Source: Desulfosporosinus fructosivorans (GTDB lineage: Bacteria; Bacillota; Desulfitobacteriia; Desulfitobacteriales; Desulfitobacteriaceae). From it: DNA of 64,000 nt. Positions 12,253 through 30,570 of this stretch are shown in pieces; positions within the stretch are counted from its first letter, which is position 1; each line of letters opens with the position of its first letter. The notes beneath the pieces were generated by a model. That model saw only the letters and a list, made by a program, of their open reading frames with translations. It made no database searches and was not told the origin of the DNA. Made by a program: the position numbers and the translations under genes. The stretch is from assembly GCF_004766045.1 (NCBI RefSeq), contig NZ_SPQQ01000013.1:1-64000 (forward strand), in the 5' to 3' direction.

Positions 12253-12362
12253 GATATTACAGCAGCAAAATGCAGATCAGGTGCAGATAAGATAAAGTTC
12301 GGATATTATCTTTGTGCTAAAATATTGTTTAAAAAAACAGCCATGAAGAATCCTTCATAGCT
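12253..12362. repeat. 110-bp direct repeat, left copy
   Basis: About 93 percent identical by eye to 27182-27290, in the same orientation. It includes a hairpin (CCATGAAG/CTTCATAG) and, on the minus strand, T-rich sequence. In the right copy this hairpin is the terminator of the two-component operon. Here it lies upstream of the SGNH gene, with vanZ diverging on the other side, so it terminates nothing obvious. The two copies bracket about 14.8 kb containing all the van genes and the ABC operon. Confidence 0.85.
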
Positions 12363-13259: not shown

Positions 13260-13431
13260 TACAAAAGGACAAGCTATCTGACTTAAGCAGATAACTTGTC
13301 CTTTTCTTGCTTTTGTGGAAGTACGGCAGTAAAGACTGTCTTTTCTGTATTACTTTGCACGAAAATATTGCCTCCATGCGCGTTTACGATTTCTTTAGCA
13401 ATAGCCAGTCCAAGCCCGGCACCGCATCAAG
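13089..13431. repeat. Direct repeat of the vanY'/vanS 3' region, copy 1
   Basis: Closely matches 16962-17273. The shared part covers the segment that encodes the vanZ tail on the plus strand, the terminator hairpin, and the last 50 or so codons of vanS on the minus strand. The copies differ by scattered substitutions and one indel near 13210. Copy 1 then jumps at ...CCGGCACCGC into a vanS segment that lies 550 bases further upstream in copy 2, which marks an internal deletion. Confidence 0.85.
13263..13305 (-). terminator. Terminator hairpin overlapping the vanS stop, copy 1
   Basis: Arms AAAAGGACAAG.TATCTG and its complement, about 18 bp with one mismatch, around a CTTAAG loop. The stem includes the TAA stop of the vanS remnant and ends in TTTTG on the minus strand. 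On the plus strand it ends in TTTTC just after the vanZ stop, so it can serve both converging genes. Confidence 0.75.
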
Positions 13432-13764
13432 CGCAGCTTTCTTTTGTTTTTCTAAGTTGTTTTTTATCTGATTTAGCTTATTTTCCATAAAATCCAATTC
13501 TGGCGATAATGTAATTTCTTCATCGGATTCCTCAGCAAGTTTATCCATTCCAGCGCTGATTTCATCAAAATATTTTGTGAACCAAGAAACAGAAAATCGA
13601 AAAAGGATAACTAAAAATATTAGGATTACAACAAAAAGGATCATGTCCATATTGTTGCGAATCACCAACTGATAGATATGCTCTGTATGGTCGTACATTT
13701 CAACCAAATCGGCAATAGCTTGTTCATCATCAATTATTAAAATATTTGCAGCCAAAAGCGTCAT
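13283..13764 (-). pseudogene. vanR-vanS remnant, copy 1 (two internal deletions)
   Basis: ATG 13764 begins with the VanR N-terminus (ANILIIDDEQAIADLVEMY), which then jumps directly into VanS at its second TM and HAMP (QLVIRNNMDMILFVVILIFL, later SPELDFMENKLNQIKNNLEK). After KKAALDA the frame joins the VanS tail out of frame (VPGLDWLLLKKS), while the true tail GLAIAKEIVNAHGG is in another frame. Lost are most of the VanR receiver and all its DNA-binding domain, the VanS N-terminus, and the histidine-kinase core. It cannot be functional. Compared with copy 2, different parts are missing, so each copy decayed separately. Confidence 0.85.
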
Positions 13765-14081: not shown

Positions 14082-14690
14082 CTATGTGATGGGAAAATCA
14101 AAATAAGCGTTTGGATAAGGTTCGTGTTTCAGTATATAATGCCACCACTCGCAATTGTATGCAATAAAACCGCAGGCCTCCATGATCGAACAAAGGTATT
14201 GACGGTTTCTCGCTTCGACTTGCGTGATCCCTTTTGCTCCATGATGTGAGACTGAATCCATCAAATCAAAGTCACCGCCCATGGGTACAAGTGTACCAGT
14301 AGCTAAATGATAAAGGGTTAAGTCAATGGCGCTGCCCCGACTGTGGCCCGACTTAGCGGACACGTATCCTTTTTCAACTATCTCGGATCTGTCAATATTC
14401 GGATAGTGTTTTAGTTTCGTCCGGCCATCTTCAAGCTGTTTTGACCAGCGCAGAAAGCAATCTGCGGCGCATTGAGGGCGATAACCATCCCAAAGAAGCA
14501 AGCCAAAGCCAAAGGATGCGGCGTTTTCTCGTGCTTTTTCCAGGGCTGCGCACAAGGCTCTCGTAACGACAATTCGATTTGCTACATATCCGTCCACCGG
14601 TTTGCCGGTAAAATTATCCCATGTGGCGTATTTAGCATCCCAACGTATTCCGGATACAAACTCGTCTACAAAGACAAAATCATTTTTCAT
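14082..14690 (-). CDS. vanX: D-Ala-D-Ala dipeptidase VanX
   Basis: 202 residues, the exact length and numbering of enterococcal VanX. Zinc ligands His116 and Asp123 (SAKSGHSRGSAIDLTLY) and His184 (EWWHYIL), catalytic base Glu181 and transition-state Arg71 (WDGYRP) are all present. The enzyme hydrolyses D-Ala-D-Ala in the cytoplasm so that only D-Ala-D-Lac is added to the peptidoglycan precursor. Its ATG overlaps the ligase stop by 4 bases (ATGA), so the two are translationally coupled. The gene looks intact and under selection, in contrast to the wrecked regulators and vanH. Confidence 0.95.
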   Translation of the reverse strand: MKNDFVFVDEFVSGIRWDAKYATWDNFTGKPVDGYVANRIVVTRALCAALEKARENAASFGFGLLLWDGYRPQCAADCFLRWSKQLEDGRTKLKHYPNIDRSEIVEKGYVSAKSGHSRGSAIDLTLYHLATGTLVPMGGDFDLMDSVSHHGAKGITQVEARNRQYLCSIMEACGFIAYNCEWWHYILKHEPYPNAYFDFPIT

Positions 14691-15728: not shown

Positions 15729-15860
15729 CTACTTTCTCCTTTCAAATTTCAGGCAATTGATAATAGTATTTTCAGCAGTATCGCTCAGAGCGTGTTCTGT
15801 GTAATAGGCGTGTGCGGAGTAATAAGCACATTCGGTAATTTTTGCAACCGCAATGTTCAC
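15729..15860 (-). pseudogene. vanH remnant (43 codons, in-frame deletion)
   Basis: GTG at 15860 overlaps the vanW stop as GTGA, and the open frame ends TAG one base before the ligase ATG. The second half, AYYTEHALSDTAENTIINCL then KFERRK, is the conserved C-terminus of VanH D-lactate dehydrogenases; the start VNIAV resembles VanH N-termini. About 280 residues between, including the NAD site and catalytic Arg/Glu/His, are gone, but frame and couplings are kept. The operon therefore cannot supply D-lactate itself and would need another D-lactate source. The remnant may persist only because it preserves translational coupling from vanW to the ligase. Confidence 0.85.
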
Positions 15861-16684
15861 TCCTTTTCTTCTGCGATAGCAGTTCCTTCCGGAAGCAAAT
15901 ACCCAATTTCACATACATCTGTATAAAGGATGTTTTCTGAGATAACTTGTTTAGATTTGATGTCTATCTCCTGCCGACAAACAGAAACCCGCTCAAAGGT
16001 TTTCCCGTCTTTTTTGAAAAAGCTCTTATCCCGATTAATGACCTCGTAACGATACCCTTTGGCCTGATCCACAAAAATACGGCCATATATGTAAGGCCCA
16101 TCGATGGATATTTCAATTTGGAAGGTAAGATTGGTATTGTTTTTGACCTTTAAATCCAGCCACCCTTCGCTGACCGTAGCGTCCACACCATCCGGCTCAT
16201 CCTCGTCCGGGGATGGAAAATCCTTAATCTGATGAGGATGCCGTTCTACAATAATGAGGGGAGTATGCAGAAACAGCCAGAACAGTAAATTACTGAGATG
16301 ACACAAACCACCTCCCGGAACCGTGACCAATTCGTCATTCACCACACACAGGCCGTCCTTATACCGCTCATTTTTCTCGGCATATCTCACACTCTGACAG
16401 AATGAGAAAGTTTCCTGCGGCCTTATCAATAACTTGTTAACGGGCTCTGTGGCAAGGCGCAGATTAAACACCTTGTTTACCTGATATTTCATATCAAAGC
16501 CCGTATTTTCATTTAGAAGCATCGATTTGGTTTCATATATACAAAAAGGCAAAAGCTCTGGAGCCTTTGTTTTCGTATAGCGGTTCCGGTCAAAGTACAT
16601 CTTGGCATAGAAGATTATTTTTCTTTGTATCCTGCGGATCGGCAGTAAGAATGGAAACAACTGAGTAATTTTTTTTCTTTTCAT
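15857..16684 (-). CDS. vanW: VanW family protein
   Basis: 275 residues. The VanW core is present: FNLRLATEPVNKLLIRPQET, FSFCQSVRYAEKNERYKDGL and the signature VPGGGLCHLSNLLFWLFLHT. Its biochemical role in vanB-type clusters is unknown. ATG 16684 starts MKRKK, but no strong ribosome site is evident, only GGGGGTC about 9 bases upstream. It stands first among the intact genes, before vanH', ligase and vanX, the vanB-like order W-H-B-X. Upstream lie a conserved hairpin and two TAAG boxes. Confidence 0.92.
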   Translation of the reverse strand: MKRKKITQLFPFLLPIRRIQRKIIFYAKMYFDRNRYTKTKAPELLPFCIYETKSMLLNENTGFDMKYQVNKVFNLRLATEPVNKLLIRPQETFSFCQSVRYAEKNERYKDGLCVVNDELVTVPGGGLCHLSNLLFWLFLHTPLIIVERHPHQIKDFPSPDEDEPDGVDATVSEGWLDLKVKNNTNLTFQIEISIDGPYIYGRIFVDQAKGYRYEVINRDKSFFKKDGKTFERVSVCRQEIDIKSKQVISENILYTDVCEIGYLLPEGTAIAEEKE

Positions 16685-16713
16685 GTCCGAGACCCCCTTT
16701 CAGGAATATAAAA

Positions 16714-16757
16714 GCCTGTCCGATTCGACAATTTCATCTTACCGAAATCAGGCAGGC
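16714..16757 (-). ncRNA. Conserved leader hairpin upstream of vanW
   Basis: GCCTGTC pairs with GGCAGGC across a loop that also pairs CGATTCG-like bases. The homologous copy at 26859-26902 has GCCTATCC pairing with GGATAGGC. At one position the G-C pair is replaced by A-T in the other copy, a compensatory change, which argues for selection on the RNA structure. It lies 30 bases before the vanW start. On the minus strand no clean T-run follows, so attenuation or transcript stabilisation is possible. Confidence 0.5.
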
Positions 16758-16773
16758 GATGTTGGGATTTTAG

Positions 16774-16823
16774 CTTATCAAAATCTTAAGAAGTGCTTAC
16801 GAAGCACTTATTCTTTTCTTAAG
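16774..16823 (-). promoter_or_regulatory. Two TAAG-N7-TAAG boxes upstream of vanW
   Basis: Minus-strand CTTAAGATTTTGATAAG (16774-16790) and CTTAAGAAAAGAATAAG (16807-16823), with a short palindrome AAGTGCTT/AAGCACTT between them. The second lies inside the vanY' 3' end. Two tandem sites upstream of the resistance genes fit a VanR-type resistance promoter. Confidence 0.55.
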
Positions 16824-17000
16824 CTGTTGTAACACTGCCAACGCGTCGGTAATATTGTATTGCTCGGATTTGTGATTTCCTTTGGCACTGGCTGTAACCA
16901 AAATGTATTCCTACTTACCTTCTTTAGCGAGGCTTGCGAGACACAGGCCAGCCTCATCTGTGTTTCTGTCCAAAGTACCAATATCGAAAAAATTCCCATG
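16797..17000 (-). pseudogene. vanY-like serine D,D-carboxypeptidase, C-terminal remnant
   Basis: Read on the minus strand: TDEAGLCLASLAKEGR then EYILVTASAKGNHKSEQYNI and TDALAVLQQLKKRIS to a stop. This is the region just after the KTG box of penicillin-binding-protein-type D,D-carboxypeptidases, as used for vanY in vanD-type clusters. The KTG itself and everything before it are missing. A longer relative with GGKT preserved lies at 26953-27165. It occupies the expected place between vanS and vanW. Confidence 0.65.
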
Positions 17001-17273
17001 CTCCTTCGTGAAGAGGCATGTTTTTATATGGCCAGCGCATTCGCCAGTATGTTCTTTGTATTTTACCCATTTTTAAGTTTTAGATCTTTATATAATTAAT
17101 TTACAAAAGGACAAGCTATCTGACTTAAGCAGATAACTTGTCCTTTTCTTGCTTTTGTGGAAGCACGACAGTAAAGACTGTCTTTTCTGTATTACTTTGC
17201 ACGAAAATATTGCCTCCATGCGCGTTTACGATTTCTTTAGCAATAGCCAGTCCAAGCCCGGCACCGCCTGTAT
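16962..17273. repeat. Direct repeat of the vanY'/vanS 3' region, copy 2
   Basis: Partner of 13089-13431, same orientation. Here the segment is in its natural place at the end of vanS. At its far end it runs into the vanY remnant, whereas copy 1 runs into the vanZ gene. Confidence 0.85.
17105..17147 (-). terminator. Terminator hairpin overlapping the vanS stop, copy 2
   Basis: Same 18-bp stem and CTTAAG loop as at 13263-13305, containing the vanS TAA. The minus strand ends CCTTTTGT. It would separate regulatory (vanRS) and resistance transcripts. Confidence 0.75.
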
Positions 17274-18277
17274 TGGTAGAACGGGATGTGTCCAGCCGAA
17301 AAAATTTCAAATATCGTTTCCAGTTTTTCTCGTGGGATAAGATTACCTTGATTCGTAAAAGTTATAATAATATTTTTATCTTGCTGCTGAGCGGAAATAT
17401 CAATGACGCTGTTTTCATAACTGTAGGCTATCGCGTTTTTCAGGATGTTATTGAATACACGGGCCAGTTTGTCTGCATCTCCCCACAGAGTGAGTCCGTC
17501 AGGCACATTGACTGACACCTGCTTTCCTTGTGGAGTCAGCGTTGGATAGAATTCATCTGCCATCTGCTGGAGCATGAACATTAAATTGATTTTTTCTTTA
17601 TTCAAAACAATAGTTTGAAGATTAAATCTTGTGATCTCAAAGAACTCATTTATAAGCTGCTCTAATCGATAAGCTTTTTCCAAGGTAATACCGACATATT
17701 TTGCCTTCTGTTCAGGAGGCATATCAGGAGCTTCATCCAGAAGACTTAAGTATCCTATAACGGAGGTCAGAGGTGTCTTTATATCATGAGCCAAGTAAAC
17801 TACCAAATCATTTTTGCGCTGCTCGGCATCAAGTGCAGCTTTCTTTTGTTTTTCCAAGTTGTTTTTTATCTGATTAAGCTTATTTTCCATAAAATCCAAT
17901 TCTGGCGATAATGTAATTTCTTCATCGGATTCCTCAGCAAGTTTATCCATTCCAGCACTGACTTCATCGAAATATTTAGTAAACCAAGAAACAAAAAATC
18001 GAAAAAGGATAACTAAAAATATTAGAATTAAAACAAAAAGGATCTCGTCCATATTGTTGCGAATCACCAACTGATAGATTGTCTGTGCGTCCGAATTATT
18101 AAAATGAAAAGCGTTGACTAAAAATCGAACGATACGATCTCCGATATGTCCACGCAGGATATAGCGCAATAGATAAACAGTCACAGCGGCGGCAACTGTA
18201 ATCAGGAGCATTTGAAAAAATACTTTCCTTTTTAATTTTGTATAATCATTCCTTCTTTTATCTCTCTTACTTTTCAA
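17125..18277 (-). pseudogene. vanS sensor kinase, single frameshift (copy 2)
   Basis: Almost full length: N-terminal KRDKRRNDYTKLKRK, TM1 (VFFQMLLITVAAAVTVYLL), a short extracellular loop, TM2, HAMP, the H box YLAHDIKTPLTSVIGYL, the N box NNILKNAIAYSY, F box, and G2 box GGAGLGLAIAKEIV. The frame breaks in an A/T homopolymer at 17299-17308: ETIFE should continue KFFRLDTSRSTNT but reads IFSAGHIPF, lacking two bases. The start is probably TTG 18277, overlapping the end of vanR by 11 bases. A sequencing or assembly error in the homopolymer would restore a complete kinase, so this copy could be nearer to functional than it looks. Confidence 0.8.
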
Positions 18278-18567
18278 TTTTATAGCCAACCCCCCATACC
18301 GTTTTGATATATTTAGGATGCTCTGTGCTTTCGTGCATTTAACCATTACCGTATTATTGCTGTTGGTGAAATACTTATCTCCCCATACCTCATGGAACAA
18401 TTCTTCCGAACTGACCACCCGTCCGCGATTGGAACAAAGAACCCAAAGAATTGAAAATTCCGTAGGCGTGAGGGGTAGCTTTTTATCATTCAGCGTACAT
18501 TCATGGGTGTCCATGTCCAATACCATATGGACTGCTCATCGTCTACAACCAAAATATTGATACTCAT
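18267..18567 (-). pseudogene. vanR response regulator, receiver deleted (copy 2)
   Basis: ATG 18567 gives MSINILVVDDEQ and then jumps to the DNA-binding domain in another frame (LDMDTHECTLNDKKLPLTPT, EFSILWVLCSNRGRVVSSEE, WGDKYF). After NNTVMV about 20 bases are lost, removing the IRHLREK recognition region and changing frame, and the end ESTEHPKYIKTVWGVGYKIE is read in a third frame. About 300 bp remain of the usual 690. The phospho-acceptor domain is gone, so VanR function is absent from both copies in this window. Confidence 0.85.
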
Positions 18568-18601: not shown

Positions 18602-18661
18602 TATTATAGTACCGCAAAACAAAAATCTATATCATAATAATTTTCTTAATAAAACCTTAAG
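18602..18661 (-). promoter_or_regulatory. vanR promoter with TAAG-N7-TAAG box (copy 2)
   Basis: Minus strand: box CTTAAGGTTTTATTAAG at 18645-18661, then TATAAT at 18602-18607, 35 bases before the vanR start. The 17-bp box is identical to that upstream of vanZ. The layout parallels copy 1 (13795-13850). Confidence 0.6.
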
Positions 18662-18707: not shown

Positions 18708-19493
18708 TTAGCTCATATCAGGCAGCTTGTCCTGCATGTACTTTTTCAGCACCGGGTATACATAGAAGTTGGTAATCAAGCCTATTAAGCTCATTGTTAT
18801 GAACAGGAACATCAAAATTCCCACCGCAGGGAGCAGTAAGAGCGGCAATAGAGCCAATACAGAGCAAAGGGCGAGTATCCCCAGATTTGGAAAGAACCTG
18901 ATTATAGAAAATATAAAAGCGTTTTTATATATCTGTTTGACTGAAAGCCTGAATGTAATCAGCATCGGATAGATATACATATGCATCATCACATAGATGA
19001 TGAAAAATATTATGACAAAAAAAGTTGCTGCAGTCTGAAGCATGTTTTTTTCGCTTATTCTCATATAAAAGCTGATATCAATTCCAATAATAAGTACCAC
19101 AACCAGGTCAGTAAGACATATGAGGCTGCTTTGTCCTGCATTTTTAATGGCATGCTCCTTAAAATCCCCCCATAAAAACGCATGCTCTTCACGGGAGAAA
19201 TTCCTTAGTATGTAAGTAAAGCCTGCCTGTGCAGGGCCGGCTGTCACAACCGGTATACATACCAGGATAGCACCGGCTGCAAAGTAAAACATCAATTCAT
19301 AAATGCTATTGCCTGTCATAACTGTGCTAATATTTTGCATCGGCAGAAAAAACTGTGCAACCAGAGGCATCACGATCACTGCAGGCAGATTGAATAAAAG
19401 GAACAGCATATTCAGCTTGACAAGGTGCCAAAACTTGCGCAGGAATATATTGAAGAAAATGACAATCCGGGGCAAATTGAAAGTACCTTCCAT
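18708..19493 (-). CDS. YesL-family (DUF624) membrane protein
   Basis: 261 residues, six hydrophobic segments. Pattern FWHLVKLNMLFLLFNLPAV near the start and TAGPAQAGFTYILRNFSREE in the middle are typical of YesL/DUF624 proteins, which accompany sugar ABC transporters in Firmicutes (yesLMNOPQ and others). Function unknown. It is the last gene of the ABC operon, 94 bases after the ATPase gene. Confidence 0.85.
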   Translation of the reverse strand: MEGTFNLPRIVIFFNIFLRKFWHLVKLNMLFLLFNLPAVIVMPLVAQFFLPMQNISTVMTGNSIYELMFYFAAGAILVCIPVVTAGPAQAGFTYILRNFSREEHAFLWGDFKEHAIKNAGQSSLICLTDLVVVLIIGIDISFYMRISEKNMLQTAATFFVIIFFIIYVMMHMYIYPMLITFRLSVKQIYKNAFIFSIIRFFPNLGILALCSVLALLPLLLLPAVGILMFLFITMSLIGLITNFYVYPVLKKYMQDKLPDMS

Positions 19494-20785: not shown

Positions 20786-22201
20786 CTATTCTCCAAGATA
20801 GGTATTTGCCCTTCTCTGGATCAGCTCTGCAGTTTCTTGCGCTGATTTAGCCCCGTTGAAGAAGGCTTTTGCTTCATCCTGAATGATTTTGTCGATATTC
20901 GGATCAGCATTGGCATAAGTATTCAACCCTGAGATAAACTTGTTTATATAGTCGATATCCGCTTGAGTCATGGCTGCCGGGTTTAATGAAATTTCGCCGG
21001 GGCCATCCAACTTCAACCTTATTTTCCTTGTCATGCCTTTTGATGTATCTATTACCTGCTTTGCTTTCTGCTGCTGTGCAGTTCTGTTGATTGGGAAACC
21101 ACCCATGGCTATACCACCTGATGCTCCAGGTTTTCCTTGCGCCCCCTCTACCTGCATGTCCTGTGCTTGGATTTCATCGGATAAAAGCACCTTCAAAAAT
21201 CCCCAGGCTATTTCTGTATGTTTGGAATTCTTGTTGATGGCATAAAGCGAATTCGTCGAAAAGGTCCTCGAACCGGAATTGCCTGATGAAGGAATATTGT
21301 AAAGGCTTAAATGGTCATTAAGTGCAGATTTCATAAACCAGTACGTAAAATAATCATCGATGTTGCACGGATAGAAGACTATCGATCCTCTGCCCGCGGC
21401 GTCCAACACCGAAACCGTATCTGTTTGGACATTGCTGTTGACAAGCTTTTCATCACCAAAAGCCTTCACTGTATTCAGCAGGTCTATGAAGCCCTGGGAA
21501 GTAAAGCTGGCTTTCTTGTTATTAGTGTCAATGTAATTGCTGTAGCTTCCGCCGGTAAAGAGGTTCAGCATATCCATAGAGCTTACGCCGGGTAATGCCG
21601 CCCGGTTACCCGCACCAGCTCCGTCCTTCTGAGTCACTTTCTCCGAGGCTGATTTGAAATCATTCCACGTCCAGTGACCGTCATCAATTTTTATTGAGCT
21701 CTGGTCCAGGATCCCCTGGTTCGCCATCAAAACATTGAAGGTAAGGCTCGTGGGCAGAACATACAGGCTGCCGTTGGTTTTCATTGCATCGAAGATATTG
21801 CTATAATATTTGCTCTTATCAAAGCTCTTATCGCTAGCCATCATGTCACTTAAATTTGCGAGAATATTCTTGGCAACATACTTGTCGTAAGGCAGTCCGG
21901 CAACCGAGATGATATCCGGTCCCTTACCCGACAGTATCTGGGTATTCAGGTTTTTCACATATGTTTCATTATCGCTGCTTGGATATGTCTGGATATCTAT
22001 CCTGTACTCAGGGTGCTCCTGCTGGAACTTGCTTATAGCCAATTCAAGCTGTCTATTGGATGCAGGAACTGATACAGTGATTACCTCCTGGCTTTGCTGC
22101 TGGGAAACGGTTTTGCTTCCCGTCCCGCAAGCCGTAAGACTCACTGTAAGTAGCACTGCAAGTAGTAGCAGGCTAATAATTTTTTTATACATTTTTAACA
22201 T
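20786..22201 (-). CDS. Extracellular solute-binding protein (family 1) lipoprotein
   Basis: About 471 residues. Lipoprotein signal MYKKIISLLLLAVLLTVSLT then AC (lipobox LTAC). SBP family 1 features: ELAISKFQQEHPEYRIDIQT and GKGPDIISVAG. Binds a sugar or oligosaccharide and delivers it to the MalF/MalG-type permeases. ATG 22201 has AAAGGAA just upstream. Its 5' end overlaps the stop of the MacB-like gene by about 17 bases, so it is coupled to that unusual neighbour. The ligand is unknown. Confidence 0.92.
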   Translation of the reverse strand: MLKMYKKIISLLLLAVLLTVSLTACGTGSKTVSQQQSQEVITVSVPASNRQLELAISKFQQEHPEYRIDIQTYPSSDNETYVKNLNTQILSGKGPDIISVAGLPYDKYVAKNILANLSDMMASDKSFDKSKYYSNIFDAMKTNGSLYVLPTSLTFNVLMANQGILDQSSIKIDDGHWTWNDFKSASEKVTQKDGAGAGNRAALPGVSSMDMLNLFTGGSYSNYIDTNNKKASFTSQGFIDLLNTVKAFGDEKLVNSNVQTDTVSVLDAAGRGSIVFYPCNIDDYFTYWFMKSALNDHLSLYNIPSSGNSGSRTFSTNSLYAINKNSKHTEIAWGFLKVLLSDEIQAQDMQVEGAQGKPGASGGIAMGGFPINRTAQQQKAKQVIDTSKGMTRKIRLKLDGPGEISLNPAAMTQADIDYINKFISGLNTYANADPNIDKIIQDEAKAFFNGAKSAQETAELIQRRANTYLGE

Positions 22202-23591
22202 CACTTTCCTTTCGTTTTGTTATTTGTGAGTTATTTAAGAATATAAAGGCCCATGCCACCAAGACACCCTTTACATCCGTTGCATACGGCAAGCCTGACA
22301 AAAAAGCTGCCGCAGTCAGAATCCCCATTGAAAGAATGAACAACAAACCTAATACGGGGGTAAGCCTGCTGGAATCCATATTTAATTCCTTAAGCTCCCG
22401 GAGGCCTGCATACAAAAGCAGGGAGCCCAGAAGGAAGGAAATGCAGAAAAGCAGGTTCAAGAGCATATCGGAGGCATTAGCAATCAGTTCGGCCTGGGGT
22501 GCTACATAGCCCCTGTTTTGTATGCCTCCTTGAATAGCAGCTTTGATCAGATCCGAATAGTAAGAAATATTTATCAACTCATCCGGAATATTCTGCGGTG
22601 GAATATAAATTGTAAATCTGATCCCTATCCAGATGAGCACGATTCCCGTTAGTGAAAGTGCCATTTCCAGGATGCGGCGCCCTATTCCCTTCAGATTGTG
22701 TTTAATTACATTTGAAAAATAATCCGTCTTACACCTATCTCTGATTAGAAAATATATCTCTTTGCTTAAGTTTTTTACATGTGACAGTAATATGAGCATC
22801 GATGCAATTCCCAGAATAAATACCAGCAAAAGCGGCTTCTGCTCCATTAATGCAAGCTTAAGATTATAGTCACTGATCTTGTAGCTTGGAGGATCCTTGC
22901 CTATTTGCCTGATTGCAGCCGAAACCTCAGTGGTATTCTGATCCAGAGTATTGGCATCGGCTGTTTTTATTTGAAGATCGGTAATACGTGCCGTAGTATC
23001 AAGCTCCAGCATTACCGAAGCAGGTATGTATACCTCCGACAGGCCGTCATCCGTCAATTTTCCTGTGATTGAATCATCCTTTTCTATAACTCCTATAATT
23101 CTGAAGGCGGCACCGAATATATCAATAGTCTTGCCGGTAGCATTCTTTGTTCTAAAAATATCCCAGGCCAGCTCCTCATCGATTATAGCAACCATCACCC
23201 CCTCTTCTTCCTGTTTTTGTGTAATAAAGCTCCCTTCTTCCAAAGCCAGACCACTAAACATCGGATACATATAATCAGTACCGATCAGCCTGACAGGAAA
23301 AGCCCTACTACCACTGGATACCGAAGTGTCAACAAGACCGGATCGTGCAGTATAACTGATATCCTTTGTTGAAAGCTCTTTCTTAAGTCTTTTTATATCA
23401 TCAATGGAAAAAGAATTCTTTCCCTGTGGGTCTGCCTGGTTTTTACCGGATACCAGCACCTTTTGCATGGAATAAGCGCCATTTAACCGGGCACACTGCT
23501 CAACCAATGCTCCACCCAATATAATCAATGAAAGCATCAGCAAAATTCCGGAGAACGTCAGGACCCATACAGCTTTTCGTCTTTTCATCAT
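22185..23591 (-). CDS. MacB-like permease with periplasmic-core-type domain
   Basis: 468 residues: TM1 at about 10-30, a 220-residue extracellular MacB_PCD-like domain (SGLVDTSVSSGSRAFPVRLI, then AIIDEELAWDIFRTKNATGK), and at least four TM segments after residue 245. It resembles permeases of MacB/FtsX-type exporters but the C-terminal half is not clearly FtsX. No MacB-type ATPase gene accompanies it. It follows the HlyD adaptor by 9 bases and precedes the sugar-binding protein, an odd mixture of export and import parts. ATG 23591 has AAGGAG. Confidence 0.7.
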   Translation of the reverse strand: MMKRRKAVWVLTFSGILLMLSLIILGGALVEQCARLNGAYSMQKVLVSGKNQADPQGKNSFSIDDIKRLKKELSTKDISYTARSGLVDTSVSSGSRAFPVRLIGTDYMYPMFSGLALEEGSFITQKQEEEGVMVAIIDEELAWDIFRTKNATGKTIDIFGAAFRIIGVIEKDDSITGKLTDDGLSEVYIPASVMLELDTTARITDLQIKTADANTLDQNTTEVSAAIRQIGKDPPSYKISDYNLKLALMEQKPLLLVFILGIASMLILLSHVKNLSKEIYFLIRDRCKTDYFSNVIKHNLKGIGRRILEMALSLTGIVLIWIGIRFTIYIPPQNIPDELINISYYSDLIKAAIQGGIQNRGYVAPQAELIANASDMLLNLLFCISFLLGSLLLYAGLRELKELNMDSSRLTPVLGLLFILSMGILTAAAFLSGLPYATDVKGVLVAWAFIFLNNSQITKRKESDVKNV

Positions 23592-23600
23592 ACCAACTCC

Positions 23601-24875
23601 TTAATTGGCAATCATAACGGGCGAGCCGTCTTCTAATGGCTTATCACTGTCTGAGATCACCTTATCCATAGCGTTTATACCGCTAAGAACCACGGTTTTT
23701 GTGTTGTCTGAGTCACCGATGCTGACAGACACCCTTTCCACATAAAACTCTTTTCCAAGGGGACCTTCCCTTTCCTTAAGTACATATACGAAAGATCCTT
23801 TATTGTCCTGCCCCACTGCGGAATTAGGTACAAGGACTTTATAGGAACCGATGCTCTTTTTGATATCAGCGGTACCGATCTCTCCTCCTATTAACCCATC
23901 CGGTGGAATATCGATTACAATATCCTTTTTTGCTCCAATCTGCTGCTGATTATCGGTAATCTGATTCACTTTCCCCTGTATAATCCTGTCGTTTAACGAA
24001 TTTATCGATAGTTTGGCTTCATCACCCGGTTCAAGGTATTCTGCAGCACTTATATTTACAGTGGCTACAAATTGGAATCCCCCACCGGTGTCCGCAATTC
24101 TGTATAGCGGTTGGGAAGCATTTGCCGTCATACCCGCTGAATAATACAGCTCGGTGACCACCCCATCGCAGGGGGCCGTTACTGTGCTCATGTTCATTTC
24201 TTTGGTAAGCTCGGCTATTTTCCGCTCCGCCATACTTATATCAAGCTTCGTGCTTTCAATATCTCTTTTATTACTGCTTATTGCTTTATCCTTATTATTC
24301 TTTGCTATCTCATAGTCCAGCTTGGCATTATCAAGATTCATTTCTGCATCAGTCAGATTAATTGCAGCTATAGCACCTGCTTCATAAAGAGCTTTGCTGC
24401 TGTCGTGGTTTTTCTGGGCCTTTTCTACATTCTGCCGAGCAATTTGAACCGCTTTATCCAGACTCATCATGCTTTCCGGCGAACCGGCTTCCATGAGCTC
24501 TTCAAGATGCAGCATTTTCTGAGCATACATATCCAGCTCATCCTCCAATTGATTTTCTATATCGCTTGTATCAAGGGTCAGAAGTGTCTGCCCCTGTTTT
24601 ACAGAGTCTCCTACATCGACCATAACTCCTGTCACCTTCATGCTGTTGCTTACATACAGGTCCTGGGTAGTATTTGCCTCTACATTGCCGGTACCCGTAA
24701 CTTCCTTGATCAGTGCCCCGCTTGCAGGGGTTTCATAAGTCACCTTCGGCAGTGTGAAATTGTTTATGGTTCTTGAGAAAAAGGTTAAAAGAAGCATTGC
24801 TGTAATGAATATAACCGTTGCCCTTCCTGTTATCTTTCTTCTTTTGATATTTGCATCCTCAACTGCTACGTTCAT
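23601..24875 (-). CDS. HlyD/MacA-type efflux adaptor protein
   Basis: 424 residues: N-terminal TM (about 17-37), a lipoyl half-motif near residue 60, a long coiled coil (about 120-215, with many Lys/Glu heptads), the second lipoyl half (TVTAPCDGVVTELYYSAGMT), and a beta-barrel and membrane-proximal domain. In Gram-positives such proteins link to ABC exporters such as MacB or YknXYZ. Here it sits between a MalG-type permease and a MacB-like permease. It may form an exporter or mechano-transmission unit with the latter. Confidence 0.88.
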   Translation of the reverse strand: MNVAVEDANIKRRKITGRATVIFITAMLLLTFFSRTINNFTLPKVTYETPASGALIKEVTGTGNVEANTTQDLYVSNSMKVTGVMVDVGDSVKQGQTLLTLDTSDIENQLEDELDMYAQKMLHLEELMEAGSPESMMSLDKAVQIARQNVEKAQKNHDSSKALYEAGAIAAINLTDAEMNLDNAKLDYEIAKNNKDKAISSNKRDIESTKLDISMAERKIAELTKEMNMSTVTAPCDGVVTELYYSAGMTANASQPLYRIADTGGGFQFVATVNISAAEYLEPGDEAKLSINSLNDRIIQGKVNQITDNQQQIGAKKDIVIDIPPDGLIGGEIGTADIKKSIGSYKVLVPNSAVGQDNKGSFVYVLKEREGPLGKEFYVERVSVSIGDSDNTKTVVLSGINAMDKVISDSDKPLEDGSPVMIAN

Positions 24876-24942: not shown

Positions 24943-25839
24943 TCAGCCTTTAAGTCCTGAGAGCTGAATCCCCTCTACGAGATAATTTTCTCCATAAAGG
25001 AAGATCAACAGCATTGGCAGCATATATATTGTCGATGCGGCAAAAGCTATCCCCATTTCCCCACTATTGATGCTGGACAGGTAAGTTGACAGCGGATGCA
25101 TATTCACATCCTGCAGGAATATCAGCGGCTGCTCAACCATATTCCAATTGTCTATGAAAACCAGAATAGCAAGTGCAGCAAGTCCTGTTTTCGACATTGG
25201 GAGAATAATGCTGAAAAATATCCTAAACTGACCAGCTCCATCTACTTTTGCAGACTCAACGTATGCATCCGGAATGTACATCATAAACTGCCTCAGCAAA
25301 AAAACACCGAATGTTCCGAATATGCCGGGCAGTATGATGGATGAGTAGCTTCCTACAAGCCCCAGTTTGTCGGCCATGATATAGTTGGGAACCAACGTGA
25401 CCTGGAACGGCATCATCATAATAATGATATATGTAAAAAACAGCTTGTCTCGAAAAATAAACTCCAACTTTGCAAACGCATAGGCAGCCATTGATGAAAC
25501 AATTATCTGACCTAATACGATCGGAACCACTATTATCAACGAGTTCCAGAATTTTATGAGAAACTGTGTCCTTTTGACCAGAGCCGTATAGTACTGTGTT
25601 AAAGTCACCATGTCGGGTATAAGCTTTACATTGGCGTACTTGCCGGACAATGTACTGCCCTGTTGATCCGGGTTACTGGAAGTTACCATACTGTAGCTGT
25701 TCTCTATCTCCTGTTCACTCCTAAAAGAATTGGTAACCGTCAGTATAAGCGGGAATAGGAACACGACAGCCATGGCAAGCAGCACAACTGACAGTACTAC
25801 CTTTCTAAGTCTTCTCTTGATATGCTTGGTAGCCTGCAT
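24943..25839 (-). CDS. Carbohydrate ABC transporter permease, MalG type
   Basis: 298 residues, six TM segments. EAA-loop variant YVESAKVDGAGQFRIFFSIILPMSKTGLAA marks a CUT1 inner-membrane permease (shown here only in part: VDGAGQFRIFFSIILPM). N-terminal region FLFPLILTVTNSFRSEQEIE. The gene is 7 bases after the MalF-type gene, with GGAGGG. It is complete, and pairs with the MalF homologue and the MsmX-type ATPase. Confidence 0.92.
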   Translation of the reverse strand: MQATKHIKRRLRKVVLSVVLLAMAVVFLFPLILTVTNSFRSEQEIENSYSMVTSSNPDQQGSTLSGKYANVKLIPDMVTLTQYYTALVKRTQFLIKFWNSLIIVVPIVLGQIIVSSMAAYAFAKLEFIFRDKLFFTYIIIMMMPFQVTLVPNYIMADKLGLVGSYSSIILPGIFGTFGVFLLRQFMMYIPDAYVESAKVDGAGQFRIFFSIILPMSKTGLAALAILVFIDNWNMVEQPLIFLQDVNMHPLSTYLSSINSGEMGIAFAASTIYMLPMLLIFLYGENYLVEGIQLSGLKG

Positions 25840-25846
25840 AACTTTA

Positions 25847-26728
25847 TCACCCTCCTATTGTACTGTTGATTCTTCTTTGAATCCTGAATAAAAACAGTAC
25901 AAGTATGTAAATGACAACAGCCATGATAAATGCAGCTGATGTTAGCATCTGGTAATCTAGGGATGCAAATTTGTTGTTCATATAATGCTGCAGCATATAA
26001 ATGCTGTCCTGAGGATATGCCCCAGAAATCAGATATACCTCCCTGAACACCTTGAAGGAATTGATTATAGACATTACGAATATGAAAAATGTAGTAGGTG
26101 TCAGATAAACCAATGTGATATTTGTAAACTTGTGCCAATTGCTCGCTCCATCGATGTCGGCTGCTTCGTAATATTCCGACGGTATATTTTGAAGGCCTGC
26201 GAGAAACAGTACCATATTATACCCGGTGTACTTCCACAAATAGACTATTACGACCACAATCCTGGCAAGATCAGTCTTCATCCAGTCTACCGGTGATAAT
26301 CCAAGGGATGAAATAACAGCATTGAGGGAGCCGTTAATATCAAACAATATCTGCCATACCAGAACAACCGATGCAACCGGAACCACCAGGGGTATGATAA
26401 AACCCATACGTATAATATTCCTGCCGTAAATCCTCCTGTTCAGTAGCAGAGCAAGCCCAAGAGAGAACAGAATATTGAGAGGAACTGCAATTGCTGTAAA
26501 AACCATGGTGTTATATCCGGCCTTTAAAAAAACAGCATTCCTCAAGAGATCGATATAGTTTGTCAGCCCAACGAAGCTGCCACCCACCGGACTGTCTACG
26601 AATGAATAATATAACCCGCCTACAAAGGGTACAAAGAAAAAGATCAAAAACCCGATAAGACTTGGTGCAAGAAAGATTAGTGCTGTTTTGTTATTATATT
26701 TTTTTCCTGTCTTTAATAAAGCTGACAT
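25847..26728 (-). CDS. Sugar ABC transporter permease, MalF type
   Basis: 293 residues from ATG 26728, which has GGAGGATGGAGG in front; the longer GTG frame (26755) would read through that ribosome site. Six TM segments; N-terminal ALIFLAPSLIGFLIFFFVPF and the EAA loop YYEAADIDGASNWHKFTNIT are typical of CUT1 MalF/UgpA permeases. First gene of a seven-gene operon (permease, permease, HlyD, MacB-like, binding protein, ATPase, YesL). About 90 bases upstream begins a relic of the van promoter region. Confidence 0.92.
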   Translation of the reverse strand: MSALLKTGKKYNNKTALIFLAPSLIGFLIFFFVPFVGGLYYSFVDSPVGGSFVGLTNYIDLLRNAVFLKAGYNTMVFTAIAVPLNILFSLGLALLLNRRIYGRNIIRMGFIIPLVVPVASVVLVWQILFDINGSLNAVISSLGLSPVDWMKTDLARIVVVIVYLWKYTGYNMVLFLAGLQNIPSEYYEAADIDGASNWHKFTNITLVYLTPTTFFIFVMSIINSFKVFREVYLISGAYPQDSIYMLQHYMNNKFASLDYQMLTSAAFIMAVVIYILVLFLFRIQRRINSTIGG

Positions 26729-26858
26729 CCTCCATCCTCCTGCGGTACAATTCACTTCTAAGTCATATGCCTTACTTTAATCAACCCTATGAAGCTTTTT
26801 AAACATTTGCATGATCTATTTTCTTTTCATCTCCGAGGCTCTTTCTGAAATTATGAAA

Positions 26859-26902
26859 GCCTATCCGATTCGATAACTTCATTCTACCGAAGAGGGATAG
26901 GC
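26859..26902 (-). ncRNA. Leader hairpin, second copy
   Basis: AAAGCCTATCC pairs with GGATAGGCTTT, a longer perfect stem than at 16714-16757, with the compensatory A-T for G-C change. It lies about 130 bases before the MalF-type gene. Confidence 0.5.
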
Positions 26903-26918
26903 TTTCTTTAAATAATTA

Positions 26919-26935
26919 CTTATAAGGATCTTAAG
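26919..26935 (-). promoter_or_regulatory. TAAG-N7-TAAG box upstream of the ABC operon
   Basis: Minus-strand CTTAAGATCCTTATAAG, same 17-bp layout as the van boxes, inside the vanY-vanW relic and about 190 bases before the MalF-type start. May place the ABC operon under VanR-type control. Confidence 0.45.
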
Positions 26936-27181
26936 TTTTCCTTATGAATGCCTTATTTTTTTAAGTACTTCCCGTAAACAGTGAATGCATCAATGATATG
27001 ATACTGCTCAGTCTGGCAATTACCTGTAGCTCCTGCGGTAATCAAAATATATCAGTTCTATTTTGTTAGCCAAGCTGGCTAGACACAGCCTAACTTCACC
27101 AATATAGTCGGTTTTGCCGCCGAGGATTCTTGGAATTAATATTAACTCCTGACTTATAAGCAATTGAACTTTACGTCCTCA

Positions 27182-27290
27182 GATATTACAGCAGAAAAAG
27201 CAGATCAGGTGCAGATGAGGTAAAGTTCGGATATTATTTTTGTGCTAAAATATTGTTTTAAAAAACAGCCATGAAGAATCCTTCATAGCT
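27182..27290. repeat. 110-bp direct repeat, right copy
   Basis: Partner of 12253-12362 in the same orientation, about 93 percent identical by eye. Here it contains the working terminator of the 27374-29781 two-component operon, so this is probably the original position. Confidence 0.85.
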
Positions 27291-27294
27291 GTTT
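27263..27294 (-). terminator. Terminator of the two-component operon
   Basis: Stem AAACAGC.ATGAAG / CTTCAT.GCTGTTT with a 4-base loop; on the minus strand it continues TTTTTTAAAAC. It lies about 80 bases after the sensor-kinase stop. Confidence 0.85.
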
Positions 27295-27339
27295 CGCCGC
27301 AAAAATTAAAATATTTCGCTAAGAGTATCTCAAACAAGG

Positions 27340-27373: not shown

Positions 27374-29110
27374 CTATGGTTGTACCGTCAGTGAAAAGAA
27401 AAAGCGGACGCCATCTTGCGTATTTTCTACACCATAAATTGCATGATGAAGCTCCAGTATTTCCTTGGATATGGAAAGTCCAAGACCCGTACCTGCTTTG
27501 GATGTCCTCGCCTCGACACGGTAGAATTGGTCCCATATCTTTTTCCTGTCTTCCACCGATATTGGGTTCCCCTGATTTTCTACGCTGATTTCTGCTGTCT
27601 GTCCATTGTCTCTTACGGCAATTACGATTGCCTGTCCATTCTCCGTATGCCGGATTGCATTACTGATAAAATTAGTAATAACGCGACTGATGAGCCCTTT
27701 ATGCCCCACTACCATTAGAGAACAAGGTATTAATATAAGAGAAAGACTTTTCTCCTGTATTTGCTCAGCCAGCGACCTGCATACTTCGGTAATCACTTTA
27801 TCAATTTCAAAAGGAGCTATTTCAGGCTTATAGGTACCAGATTCAAACTTAGCTAGGTCCAACATGTTGACAACCAGCAAGTCCGTCCGTTGTATTTCGT
27901 CATCCATCGCCTGAAAGTAATGTTCCCTTTTTTCAGCAGCAATTCCGTCTTTTAAAATCGATAGACAACTTTTCATAACAGCAAGAGGCGTTTTCAATTC
28001 ATGAGATACCCCGGCAATAAATTCCTTCCGTATAGTTTCCAATTTTCTCTCTTTATCGAGATCCTGTTTAAGCTGACCAATATATGCTTCCATCTGGTTC
28101 GACAGGTAATTGATATTTTGGGATAGCTGACCAATCTCATCCTCAGAACGCACCGGCAGCTTTTCCGTAAAATCCATGTTTGCTATTTTCCCTGTGATCT
28201 GGTTGATGGATATCAGCGGGTTCGCCAGCCACTTCGAAAAAATAAATGCTAAAAATATAACACACAGAAAGGTAAATCCAAAAAAGTACGGATAGAATTG
28301 CCGCATAACCGCTATTGCTTCATCTACCGGCTGAAGAGAGGTCATAGCAAAAATGTATCCCATTAATCCATTTTCAATAACCGGTTTAATGATGATCTTA
28401 TATTCCGCTAAATCTTCTGTTGCACTAAGTTCTTCAGCACGCTGAAGGGGTTCCGCATTATCAGCCAGCAGCCTGGCTTGAAATTCTTTTACTTGTTCCA
28501 AAAAATAACCTTCCTGGTAAGGAAACGCTATATACGACCTTCGTTCCGGAAATATAGTTTTCGTTATCGTTCCCCTGTATAGGCCAGTTCTAAGGTGACT
28601 ATAAGCTTGATCGGCCTGAGGACCATGCAGCTTGTTGGCAAGGTTTAAATTTACGACTCCCGCTGAATTAGTCTGAATCTGATAAGGTATCCTTTCATCT
28701 GCTATATCAACTGTATCAATAATCACCTCATCGCCGACCTTCAATGTTGAGAGTACAGCAGAAGAAAATTCTCCTTCAAAGGAGTACATTGGTATGCGCA
28801 GATTACCCTGGGCCTCATTCTTCAGTTTAACTTCGATATAGTAATTTTCTACATCCCCGATACGTCCATACTCATCCAATTTTGTAATCCAGACCTGATT
28901 ATTCTTATAAAGCTCGACGGATGCTGCTTCCGCTCCTTTTTTCGCTGCTATATTTGAGTACTCGTCCATATCCATTTTGAGAGCATCCGCTTTCTTACTA
29001 ATATAATATTTCTCAAAAAAGTAGTTTTGCGTAATGCCAATGACTAAAAACACCGTAGAGAATAATAGAGCTGTCAGCACAAACCATTTAAAAACAATAC
29101 TTTTTCTCAT
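27374..29110 (-). CDS. Sensor histidine kinase
   Basis: 578 residues: TM1 (about 8-28), a 240-residue extracellular sensor region, TM2 (about 275-297), HAMP, HisKA with FIAGVSHELKTPLAVMKSCL, and HATPase with NAIRHTENGQAI and GTGLGLSISKEIL. The C-terminus ends soon after the last ATPase strand, as usual. It overlaps the response regulator by 4 bases (ATGA). The large extracellular domain suggests an envelope or ligand signal. The terminator after it is duplicated beside the acyl-transfer cluster at 12.3 kb, so those genes may once have been its neighbours. Confidence 0.93.
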   Translation of the reverse strand: MRKSIVFKWFVLTALLFSTVFLVIGITQNYFFEKYYISKKADALKMDMDEYSNIAAKKGAEAASVELYKNNQVWITKLDEYGRIGDVENYYIEVKLKNEAQGNLRIPMYSFEGEFSSAVLSTLKVGDEVIIDTVDIADERIPYQIQTNSAGVVNLNLANKLHGPQADQAYSHLRTGLYRGTITKTIFPERRSYIAFPYQEGYFLEQVKEFQARLLADNAEPLQRAEELSATEDLAEYKIIIKPVIENGLMGYIFAMTSLQPVDEAIAVMRQFYPYFFGFTFLCVIFLAFIFSKWLANPLISINQITGKIANMDFTEKLPVRSEDEIGQLSQNINYLSNQMEAYIGQLKQDLDKERKLETIRKEFIAGVSHELKTPLAVMKSCLSILKDGIAAEKREHYFQAMDDEIQRTDLLVVNMLDLAKFESGTYKPEIAPFEIDKVITEVCRSLAEQIQEKSLSLILIPCSLMVVGHKGLISRVITNFISNAIRHTENGQAIVIAVRDNGQTAEISVENQGNPISVEDRKKIWDQFYRVEARTSKAGTGLGLSISKEILELHHAIYGVENTQDGVRFFFSLTVQP

Positions 29111-29781
29111 AGCTGTTCCTCATCGAATTTATATCCCGAACGGATAACCGTAACAATACAGCTGCCTTTACTGCCCAGCTTAGCACGCAGGTTTCTGATA
29201 TGGCTGTTTAAGGTCTTTTCATCACTATAAAAATCATATCCCCATATTCTCGAGATTAATTGCTCTCTGGTAATGACAATCCCTTTATTTTGCATTAAAT
29301 AAGTGAGAATTTCCAATTCTGTATGCGTCAAATTAATGGTATTGCCATCTACTGAAACAAGTCTTGACCCCATATTTATGACAATACCTCCGGCCGATGT
29401 CAGCATTCCATCCACAGTATCTGAGTATTTTTCCAGAAACCGTTTCACTTTTGCCATTAAAACCCGGGGACTATATGGTTTGATCAGATAATCATCCGCG
29501 CCCAGCTCATATCCCAGCAAAGAATCATCCTCATCGGAACGCGCGGTCATAATGATGATAGGGATACCGGAACTTTTCCGTATCCTGCGGCATACTGACC
29601 AGCCGTCAAGCTTCGGCAGAACAATGTCTAAGATAACTAAATCAACAGAATTTGATTGAAACAACTCTAAAGCTTCTTCACCATCTGCGGCCTCTAATAC
29701 CTGGTATCCATCCTCGATTAGATAGTCCATTATCACTTCACGTAAAATATCTTCATCTTCAACAACCAATATTTTATTCAT
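29107..29781 (-). CDS. OmpR-family response regulator
   Basis: 224 residues. Receiver: EDEDI acidic pair, DLVILDIVLPKLDGW (phospho-Asp), MTAR (Thr) and IKPYSPRVLMAKVK (Lys). C-terminal winged helix: TELEILTYLMQNKGIVITRE and SHIRNLRAKLG. First gene of the pair. As the only intact OmpR-type regulator near the van region, it is a candidate to bind the TAAG boxes in place of lost VanR; that is inference. Confidence 0.93.
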   Translation of the reverse strand: MNKILVVEDEDILREVIMDYLIEDGYQVLEAADGEEALELFQSNSVDLVILDIVLPKLDGWSVCRRIRKSSGIPIIIMTARSDEDDSLLGYELGADDYLIKPYSPRVLMAKVKRFLEKYSDTVDGMLTSAGGIVINMGSRLVSVDGNTINLTHTELEILTYLMQNKGIVITREQLISRIWGYDFYSDEKTLNSHIRNLRAKLGSKGSCIVTVIRSGYKFDEEQL

Positions 29782-30570
29782 CCCATACCTCCATCTGTTT
29801 CCTTACAAACTTAATTAGAGTTAACAGTGGTAAGCTATAATCATAAATAGCAGTATCAAGGTTTGCTACTTCCATTTTAAGTATGCCTTACAAGTAAAAT
29901 CTTTTGTATTTACACATCTAATTTTATTATAACTGCAAAATTGATAAAGCAAAAATCAAAGGTTCTGCCTTTGTAAGCGTACTATAGTCCCACGTGTGTT
30001 GGGTCGATAATTCGGAGGTTTTTGTGTTGAATTTAAGGTCATCCTTATCCTCTCAATCACCCAATGTCATCTATAAAATAGCCTAAAATCGGGGCAAAAA
30101 AATGCACTTTTTTGCCCCGATTTTAGACTATTTTATGCTCCAAAACCACAACATCTTATGGTCATATCGCCTTATTTGAATTCTATCTTGTGGCCAATTG
30201 ACCTGTATTCCCCTTAATACCTAATAAATTCGGAAAATCTCTTACTTCATAAGTGAGTACTATTCTCTGACTCTGTGGTGAATATTGATTGGCCCTTATA
30301 AAAACTTGTGACAATTGTATATCCAAAAATTAATGCTGAAGCCTGCATTGGCTTATGCCATGTAATCGTTGCGAAAAAAAATAATTGGCCCTGTCACCCT
30401 CTGAATAATGGAAAATGATTCTAAGTGTGTTATAATAATGAACCACTCTTCATTGAAATGGAGAGCATCTTTAGAATTCTGGGCAGAATATCCTGAAATC
30501 CTATTATATTGATCTGAGCTTGGCCTGCTTAATAAGCGCTTTTTTAAAGTCTCACATATTGGAGGTTGCT
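29782..30570. other. Intergenic stretch, about 790 bp
   Basis: No gene that I can support. It holds the long hairpin at 30073-30136, described separately, and a TATAAT at 30431-30436 that could be a -10 element for the AI-2E-family gene, without a good -35. Confidence 0.5.
30073..30136. repeat. 29-bp inverted repeat hairpin
   Basis: Arms 30073-30101 and 30108-30136 pair with one mismatch. The inner part is CGGGGCAAAAAA / TTTTTTGCCCCG around a 6-base loop. The A6/T6 adjoin the loop rather than follow the stem, so it is not a standard terminator. Nearest genes diverge from it (regulator on minus, exporter on plus). It could be a small mobile palindrome or a cruciform. Confidence 0.7.

What the first reader, a model, noticed from the sequence alone, without database searches (positions are those of the whole stretch)
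26815..27165. Van promoter relic now upstream of the ABC operon
A third copy of the vanY end, TAAG box, leader hairpin and vanW start (cut by a stop after four codons) lies directly before the MalF-type gene. The box and hairpin are better preserved than the flanking coding pieces. The ABC operon may have captured a vancomycin-responsive promoter.
Basis: inference. Interest (0 to 1): 0.55.

Follow-up and report, generated by a model that had tools for sequence, protein, structure and literature searches.

The report
VanR operator array before transporter operon
A stretch of DNA that normally switches on vancomycin-resistance genes sits, with its binding sites kept, in front of an intact transporter operon, and the same pairing recurs in related bacteria, so the transporter is probably part of the cell's vancomycin response.

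Summary
Window 26816-27157 (minus strand) holds a decayed vanY C-terminus (S11 carboxypeptidase), four TAAG boxes at exact 11-bp spacing, an inverted repeat and a vanW start cut after MKRK, directly before an intact MalF-MalG-HlyD-MacB-SBP-MalK operon. It matches the vanY/vanW junction at 16655-16956 (E 4e-32). The genome holds two such units, not three.
It is more than a relic. The promoter is 86-90% identical to leaders found mostly before vanZ-vanR genes in sister species. The array also precedes the same operon in Herbinix (MAG), Geosporobacter and Anaerosolibacter genomes. Arrays precede a second clade of the operon in three van-bearing genomes; in one the operon follows vanW directly. 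TAAG cores barely change while spacers do. An intact VanRS is encoded elsewhere in this genome; the copy in this cluster is broken. A terminator-like hairpin separates the operon from the upstream two-component genes.
Best reading: the operon is a VanR-regulon member. Binding and induction are inferred, not shown. The "leader hairpin" overlaps the likely -10 element, so it is probably not a transcribed leader.

The parts
26968..27157 (-). decayed C-terminal end of a vanY gene (Peptidase_S11 D,D-carboxypeptidase)
   Evidence: tblastn with the intact vanY at L001:7119-8084, two pieces at 56% and 61%; PF00768 for the intact relative
26919..26955 (-). four TAAG boxes, 11 bp apart: proposed VanR operator array of the ABC operon
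   Evidence: cores kept in L006, L009, L007
26881..26886 (-). TAGAAT, proposed -10 element, 36 bp from the start of the last TAAG
   Evidence: TAGAAT or TAAGAT at 35-36 bp in 14 of 15 arrays looked at before ABC, vanW, vanI and vanZ genes
   Evidence: half lost in some leaders
26816..26830 (-). vanW start remnant, ATG AAA AGA AAA TAG
25847..26755 (-). MalF-type permease, first gene of the ABC operon
   Evidence: PF00528; dN/dS 0.14-0.24 against three relatives
24943..25839 (-). MalG-type permease
   Evidence: PF00528
23601..24875 (-). HlyD/RND-type periplasmic adaptor
22185..23591 (-). MacB_PCD membrane protein; no ATPase domain found in it
   Evidence: PF12704 only
20786..22204 (-). extracellular solute-binding protein
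   Evidence: PF01547
19588..20709 (-). MalK-type ATPase
18708..19493 (-). DUF624 / MusI-like membrane protein
   Evidence: PF04854; MusI model 50.9 bits, below its cut-off 160
18645..18659 (-). two TAAG boxes before the broken vanR; L006 has a matching pair before its vanR
17125..18526 (-). broken vanR/vanS: vanR C-terminal part in one frame with vanS, vanS interrupted near its end
16818..16967 (-). vanY C-terminal remnant of the van cluster
16774..16821 (-). five-box TAAG array before vanW
15857..16684 (-). vanW
   Evidence: NF033128
14687..15745 (-). VanI-type D-Ala-D-Lac ligase
   Evidence: NF000372, 754.6 bits against cut-off 700
14082..14690 (-). vanX D-Ala-D-Ala dipeptidase
   Evidence: NF033115
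27262..27295 (-). terminator-like hairpin (15 pairs, T-rich 3' side) after the upstream two-component genes
   Evidence: fold of 27240-27300, -20.6 kcal/mol; the consensus terminator scan does not list it
27374..29781 (-). histidine kinase and OmpR-type response regulator upstream of the array; below every VanS and VanR model cut-off shown

Best explanation
The segment is the operator-promoter of the ABC operon and belongs to the VanR regulon of a VanI-type resistance system. VanR-P (made by the intact vanRS elsewhere in this genome) would bind the four 11-bp-spaced TAAG half-sites and activate an otherwise weak promoter with TAGAAT at 26881-26886, giving transcription of MalF-MalG-HlyD-MacB-SBP-MalK and perhaps DUF624 when vancomycin or its effect is sensed. 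It arose when the operon came to lie behind a vanRS-type promoter; L006 still shows promoter - ABC - DUF624 - vanR - vanS - vanY. The vanY end and vanW start are leftovers of the cassette. Shown: sequences, conservation, recurrent linkage, an intact VanR whose presumed recognition helix is unchanged. Inferred: VanR binding, start site, induction, role in resistance.
For: Linkage: of 14 loci with MalF at least 60% identical, 6 have a TAAG array (3 or more boxes) within 300 bp upstream (window, L006, L007, L009, L117, L119). In a 7th, L118, array, vanW and MalF are consecutive (vanW and MalF matches end and begin 31 bp apart). An 8th, L013, has array - vanY right after the operon. The seven fall in two separate MalF clades. 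None of the 66 loci at 52% identity or less holds a three-box array. Box identity: of 26 distinct four-box places (35 rows) in 73 genomes, 17 lie at van genes or van remnants, 7 are plain or near-plain tandem repeats, 2 are neither (my count). Core conservation: 16/16, 15/16, 16/16 TAAG letters kept against L006, L009, L007, with spacers 16/21, 16/21, 13/21. Geometry: TAGAAT/TAAGAT 35-36 bp after the last TAAG. Genome: vanR, vanS and vanY open reading frames at C34; the stretch NSNNTVMVHIRHLREKM identical in all 8 VanR compared. Operon under purifying selection, dN/dS 0.04-0.33 for five genes. Terminator-like hairpin before the array. No sigma-70-like site on the minus strand between array and MalF.
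Against: No expression or binding data. The VanR/VanS of this very cluster is broken, so control must come in trans from another contig of a draft assembly with 5.42% estimated contamination. Six of the 14 close loci (L008, L010, L011, L012, L014, L131) carry the operon without an array. The scan lists minus-strand sigma-70-like sites upstream of the array (27233-27262, in two spacings, and 27046-27073, with TG) that could also serve the operon, and does not list the hairpin at 27262-27295 as a terminator. Control pattern: the four-box pattern read backwards also matches, 15 rows in the same 73 genomes against 35, not examined further; in this genome the three-box pattern has 7 rows against 4 for the control. 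The box differs from the published enterococcal site: best box in the ABC array 9 of 12 letters of (T/C)CGTANGAAA(T/A)T, a score reached by 580 of 127,976 positions in the window. Core-over-spacer conservation is significant against vanW and L007 but not alone against L006 (p 0.057) or L009 (p 0.21). Window, L006 and L009 may share one recent transfer, so they are not independent.
Confidence: 0.72

Rival explanations
1. The operon is controlled by the histidine kinase/response regulator encoded just upstream (27374-29781); the van-like segment is inert debris of the island's insertion.
For: The pair is adjacent and co-directional. The box-less paralogue in G003 (L131) sits beside a response regulator 48% and a kinase 41% identical to this pair, and L008, L011 and L012 also have two-component genes nearby.
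Against: A 15-pair hairpin with a T-rich 3' side follows that gene pair before the array, though the consensus scan does not call it. This pair is not beside the operon in L006, L007 or L009, which keep the array; L009 has a different pair some 4 kb upstream. In G016 a 76% relative of the kinase stands about 1.1 kb from the same other flank with no match to the island between, so the pair belongs to the site and not to the island. TAAG cores are kept.
Confidence: 0.12
2. Pure relic: the segment is leftover DNA carried with the operon by horizontal transfer, and the operon uses another promoter, for example one of the sigma-70-like sites at 27046-27073 or 27233-27262.
For: Island-like position: 110-bp repeats at 95% at both ends, flanks 1.1 kb apart in G016. 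Operon and leader are 84-90% identical in three distant genomes, which fits recent transfer with little time for decay. vanY and vanW pieces are plainly dead. Two promoter-like places upstream of the array on the minus strand.
Against: L007 has diverged (array region 40/50, hairpin 25/50) yet keeps 16/16 core letters. A second MalF clade has arrays in other arrangements. The upstream promoter-like sites lie in DNA that L009 lacks in whole or part, since its match to the window ends at 27060.
Confidence: 0.13
3. The palindrome at 26856-26905 is an RNA attenuator or the terminator of the old vanY, and regulates by transcript structure.
For: Fold -21.9 kcal/mol, z -4.8; 89.8% of cells paired in 14 chosen leaders and two pairs changed on both sides; covariation score reached by 6 of 500 shuffles.
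Against: Its 5' arm lies upstream of the conserved -10-like hexamer. The 3' arm is gone in L120, L122 and L127 while array and TAGAAT stay, and it is half changed in L007 (25/50); these leaders and L119 were not among the 14 counted, so 89.8% is too favourable. Pairs with double changes are no more than shuffles give (142/500).
Confidence: 0.1

Closest known systems
vanI vancomycin-resistance cluster of Desulfitobacterium/Desulfosporosinus (PMC4229326; passages seen)
   Same: Ligase above the VanI cut-off, vanX, vanW, vanR and vanS sequences
   Different: Published order is vanX-murF-vanK-W-I-R-S; the words promoter, ABC and transporter do not occur in its main text. Here vanRS is broken and an ABC operon lies in the cluster. 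vanH, absent from the published cluster, was not searched for here.
VanR-regulated promoters PH/PR (vanA) and PYG (vanG) (PMC4405338; passages seen)
   Same: Directly repeated VanR sites upstream of a promoter with a poor -35; consensus contains TANG, as TAAG here; vanR autoregulation in vanA
   Different: Published repeats are 12-bp motifs, one to three per promoter; here TAAG at 11-bp spacing, three to five. The genes downstream here are a transporter.
CUT1 (MalEFGK/MusEFGKI) carbohydrate ABC importers (class name recalled)
   Same: MalF, MalG, solute-binding protein, MalK, DUF624/MusI-like protein
   Different: HlyD-type adaptor and MacB_PCD protein lie inside the operon; MusI model score 50.9 is below its cut-off 160; substrate unknown

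Membership tests
VanR-regulated promoter | repeated sites shared with van promoters upstream of the gene | tested here: met
   four TAAG boxes at 11-bp spacing, as before vanW, vanY, vanI and vanZ-vanR genes
VanR-regulated promoter | match to the footprinted consensus (T/C)CGTANGAAA(T/A)T | tested here: inconclusive
   best 9 of 12 in the ABC array and 10 of 12 in the vanW array; 9 or better at 580 of 127,976 window positions
VanR-regulated promoter | intact VanR/VanS in the same cell | tested here: met
   C34:307293-307988 and the vanS frame next to it; next best regulator only 51%; draft assembly, 5.42% contamination
VanR-regulated promoter | VanR binding and glycopeptide induction | not testable with these tools
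   needs footprinting and expression data
vanI cluster | VanI-type D-Ala-D-Lac ligase with vanX | tested here: met
   NF000372 754.6 bits (cut-off 700); NF033115 388 bits (cut-off 320)
vanI cluster | functional vanR and vanS in the cluster | tested here: not met
   both broken in the window; the cluster depends on another VanRS or is unregulated
vanI cluster | no vanH beside the ligase | not tested
   no search for vanH was made

The most novel reading that the evidence does not exclude
VanRS in these anaerobes commands more than peptidoglycan remodelling: a hybrid ABC system (CUT1-type importer plus HlyD/MacB module) is a recurrent, horizontally moving arm of glycopeptide resistance or of wall-fragment handling, placed behind VanR operators at least twice.
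Probability: 0.55. Interest if true: 0.65.

Novelty: new variant of a known kind. Interest (0 to 1): 0.5.

Why it matters
If true, it adds a transporter to the vancomycin regulon, gives a readable operator (TAAG-N7 repeats, 36-bp step to the -10) by which other VanR targets can be sought in any genome, and shows how a regulator gains new target genes through a moved promoter. The listings of seven searches showed no paper on this transporter or this operator; that covers only open-licence papers and the terms used. PMC11273654 notes in passing vanRS copies next to ABC transporter genes in Robinsoniella and Enterococcus (passages seen).

Tried and rejected
Third copy: a whole-genome DNA search gave only two copies of the unit. 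Other three-box sites in the genome: C34 is the vanS/vanY junction of a vanRSY group, not a relic; C38:62398 was not followed up. Origin from this window's vanW promoter: rejected as the closest source, since leaders of sister species are closer. Leader attenuator: weakened by the -10 position and weak covariation. Sigma-70 scan: no minus-strand site at the array, in keeping with an activated promoter but proving nothing; the same scan finds none at the vanW promoter. The wider 'class' searches held only nine genomes beyond the order and added no further ABC loci.

Limits: the upstream flank is short or cut in some of the 66 distant loci, so 0 of 66 speaks of the DNA held. The tree is of MalF only, 30 rows chosen from the loci; several deep forks are unsupported and the join of L118 with the box-less L131 is moderate (87/73), so two origins of the pairing are likely, not proven. 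The 14 leaders and the 21 arrays were chosen by hand. In the six arrays before vanY genes, four have a better -10 match (AATAAT) at +39 than the hexamer at +36.

Full report
What is there. On the minus strand, just before the MalF-type gene (26755), the window holds in order: the end of a vanY gene broken by frameshift and stops (26968-27157), four TAAG boxes exactly 11 bp apart (26955 to 26919), an interrupted palindrome (26905-26856) and ATG AAA AGA AAA TAG (26830-26816), the first codons of vanW and a stop. The unit aligns with the vanY/vanW junction at 16655-16956 at 66% (E 4e-32), local score 89 against at most 19.5 in 500 shuffles. Four-box arrays occur at two places in the window and in none of 100 shuffles. 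The whole genome holds two copies of the unit. Three-box sites occur at two more places: between vanS and vanY of a vanR-vanS-vanY group on contig 34, and at C38:62398, which I did not examine. The backward control pattern has 4 rows in this genome against 7.

The setting. The genes below the array run MalF, MalG, HlyD-type adaptor, MacB_PCD protein, solute-binding protein, MalK, DUF624, then broken vanR and vanS, a vanY remnant, a five-box array, vanW, a VanI-type D-Ala-D-Lac ligase and vanX, all on one strand. So the operon lies inside the van cluster. The 15 kb between 12363 and 27181 are flanked by 110-bp repeats at 95% (12253-12362 and 27182-27290). In G016 the two outer flanks stand about 1.1 kb apart and blastn finds no match to the island between them; in G035 they are some 26 kb apart. 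The cluster and the operon therefore look like one insertion, on the evidence of one genome. The two-component genes upstream are followed by a 15-pair hairpin with a T-rich 3' side at 27262-27295 (-20.6 kcal/mol); the consensus scan does not list it, so it is terminator-like, not a proven terminator. If it works, the operon needs its own promoter in 26756-27262.

Relatives of the operon. One scan of named genomes gave 75 loci. Three of the nine with MalF identity of 75% or more carry the array before MalF: L006 (Herbinix MAG), L009 (Geosporobacter) and L007 (Anaerosolibacter). L006 runs array - ABC - DUF624 - two boxes - vanR - vanS - box - vanY (cut by the contig end), that is, the window's arrangement with regulators unbroken in the matches, but without MalK. 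L007 has a 331-aa vanY with its own array, then the array, then the operon. L013 has array - vanY - VanZ-family gene after the operon. Five have no array (L008, L010, L011, L012, L014). None of the 66 more distant loci holds a three-box array. In 73 genomes of the window's order, four further loci at 62-64% turned up: three with arrays (L117: vanRS then arrays then ABC; L119; L118: array - vanW - ABC) and one without (L131); a fifth, at 48% (L116), has none. The seven array loci form two separate groups in a MalF tree.

The boxes are van boxes. Of 26 distinct four-box places in those genomes (35 rows merged by me), 17 lie at van genes or remnants, counting the window's two and one (G016) where an ORF that I take from memory for a transposase stands between array and the vanZ-like gene; 7 are simple or near-simple tandem repeats; 2 (G014 and G019 contig 37) match none of my query genes. 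The backward control gave 15 rows in the same genomes, which I did not sort into tandem repeats and others. The closest relatives of the ABC promoter are eight leaders of sister species at 86-90% over 100-147 bp, against 81% over 73 bp for the window's own vanW leader. Five of the eight stand directly before vanZ-vanR (G017, G023, G024, G028, G032), one behind the ORF just named (G016), one before vanS (a second one of G024), one near a vanW piece (G009). Counting weaker hits too, eight leaders stand before a whole vanZ and vanR (G010, G013, G017, G019, G023, G024, G028, G032) and one before a broken vanZ (G033). Several of these leaders also carry an AAAGAAAATAGAT-like vanW-start remnant, so the remnant came with the promoter and says nothing about where vanW stood next to the operon.

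What is conserved. Against the vanW copy, identity is 62% for the vanY end, 62% for the array and 74% for the palindrome, but TAAG cores are 16/16 and spacers 10/21 (Fisher p 0.0006). Against L006, L009 and L007 the cores are 16/16, 15/16 and 16/16, spacers 16/21, 16/21 and 13/21 (p 0.057, 0.21, 0.006). These three loci were found through MalF, not through the boxes. A TAGAAT or TAAGAT hexamer stands 35 or 36 bp after the last TAAG in 14 of 15 hand-chosen arrays before ABC, vanW, vanI and vanZ genes (L007: TAAACT); before six vanY genes the same place reads TTAAAT or TTGAAT, though four of them have a better match, AATAAT, three bases on. This resembles the published VanRG promoter, where VanRG protects -100 to about -43 and the -35 is poor (PMC4405338, passages). 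The palindrome folds well (z -4.8), but its 5' arm would lie upstream of that -10; three leaders have lost the 3' arm and keep the rest, and pairs changed on both sides are no more frequent than in shuffles (142/500 reach it), while the cell count (7/500) and the score (6/500) are higher than in most (leaders without the arm were not in that set). I take it as a possible DNA feature, not a leader.

The regulator. The vanR and vanS of this cluster are broken. An unbroken pair is on contig 34; no other regulator in the genome exceeds 51% identity to it. The stretch NSNNTVMVHIRHLREKM of the DNA-binding domain, from memory the recognition helix, is identical in eight VanR proteins, the C34 one included. 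The assembly has an estimated contamination of 5.42%, so that the two contigs share one cell is likely, not certain.

The operon is alive. Its genes are open, and dN/dS against L006, L007 and L009 is 0.04-0.33 for the five genes compared; the uneven dS (MalG 0.76-1.12, MalF 0.09-0.20) points to recombination within the operon.

How it most likely works. VanR-P from the intact pair binds the array and activates the operon along with vanY and vanW. Against this stand the promoter-like sites upstream of the array (27046-27073, 27233-27262), the six close loci without an array, and the lack of any expression data. What the transporter moves is unknown. A CUT1-type importer with an adaptor and a MacB-type protein could take up or expel amino sugars, wall fragments or the antibiotic itself; this is conjecture.

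Taxonomy. The ligase type, the genome size and the published spread of vanI point to Desulfosporosinus or a neighbour; this is inference, not a result.

Noticed in passing
window 12253-12362 and 27182-27290: 110-bp direct repeats, 95% identical, bracket the van cluster plus ABC operon; in G016 the outer flanks are about 1.1 kb apart. Looks like the trace of an insertion.
   Followed up: partly
window 13384-13764 and 17125-18526: Two different broken vanR/vanS composites, one with receiver start plus kinase middle, one with DNA-binding end plus kinase, suggest recombination between tandem copies.
   Followed up: no
L001:7119-9989: An unbroken vanR-vanS-vanY group elsewhere in the same genome; I recognised no ligase by eye among the ORFs listed beside it.
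   Followed up: partly
G000:C38:62398-62423: A further three-box CTTA site in this genome, surroundings not looked at.
   Followed up: no
window 22185-24875: HlyD adaptor and MacB_PCD protein inside a CUT1-type importer operon, order kept in both MalF clades.
   Followed up: partly
window 25847-26755 and 24943-25839 against L006, L007, L009: Neighbouring genes differ strongly in dS (0.09-0.20 and 0.76-1.12), a sign of gene-by-gene recombination.
   Followed up: no
window 30073-30136: Directly adjoining 32-bp inverted repeat, 94% complementary.
   Followed up: no
L129:4967-5137: An array followed by a vanW fragment only, perhaps another displaced van promoter, upstream of a vanW-vanI-vanX group.
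   Followed up: no
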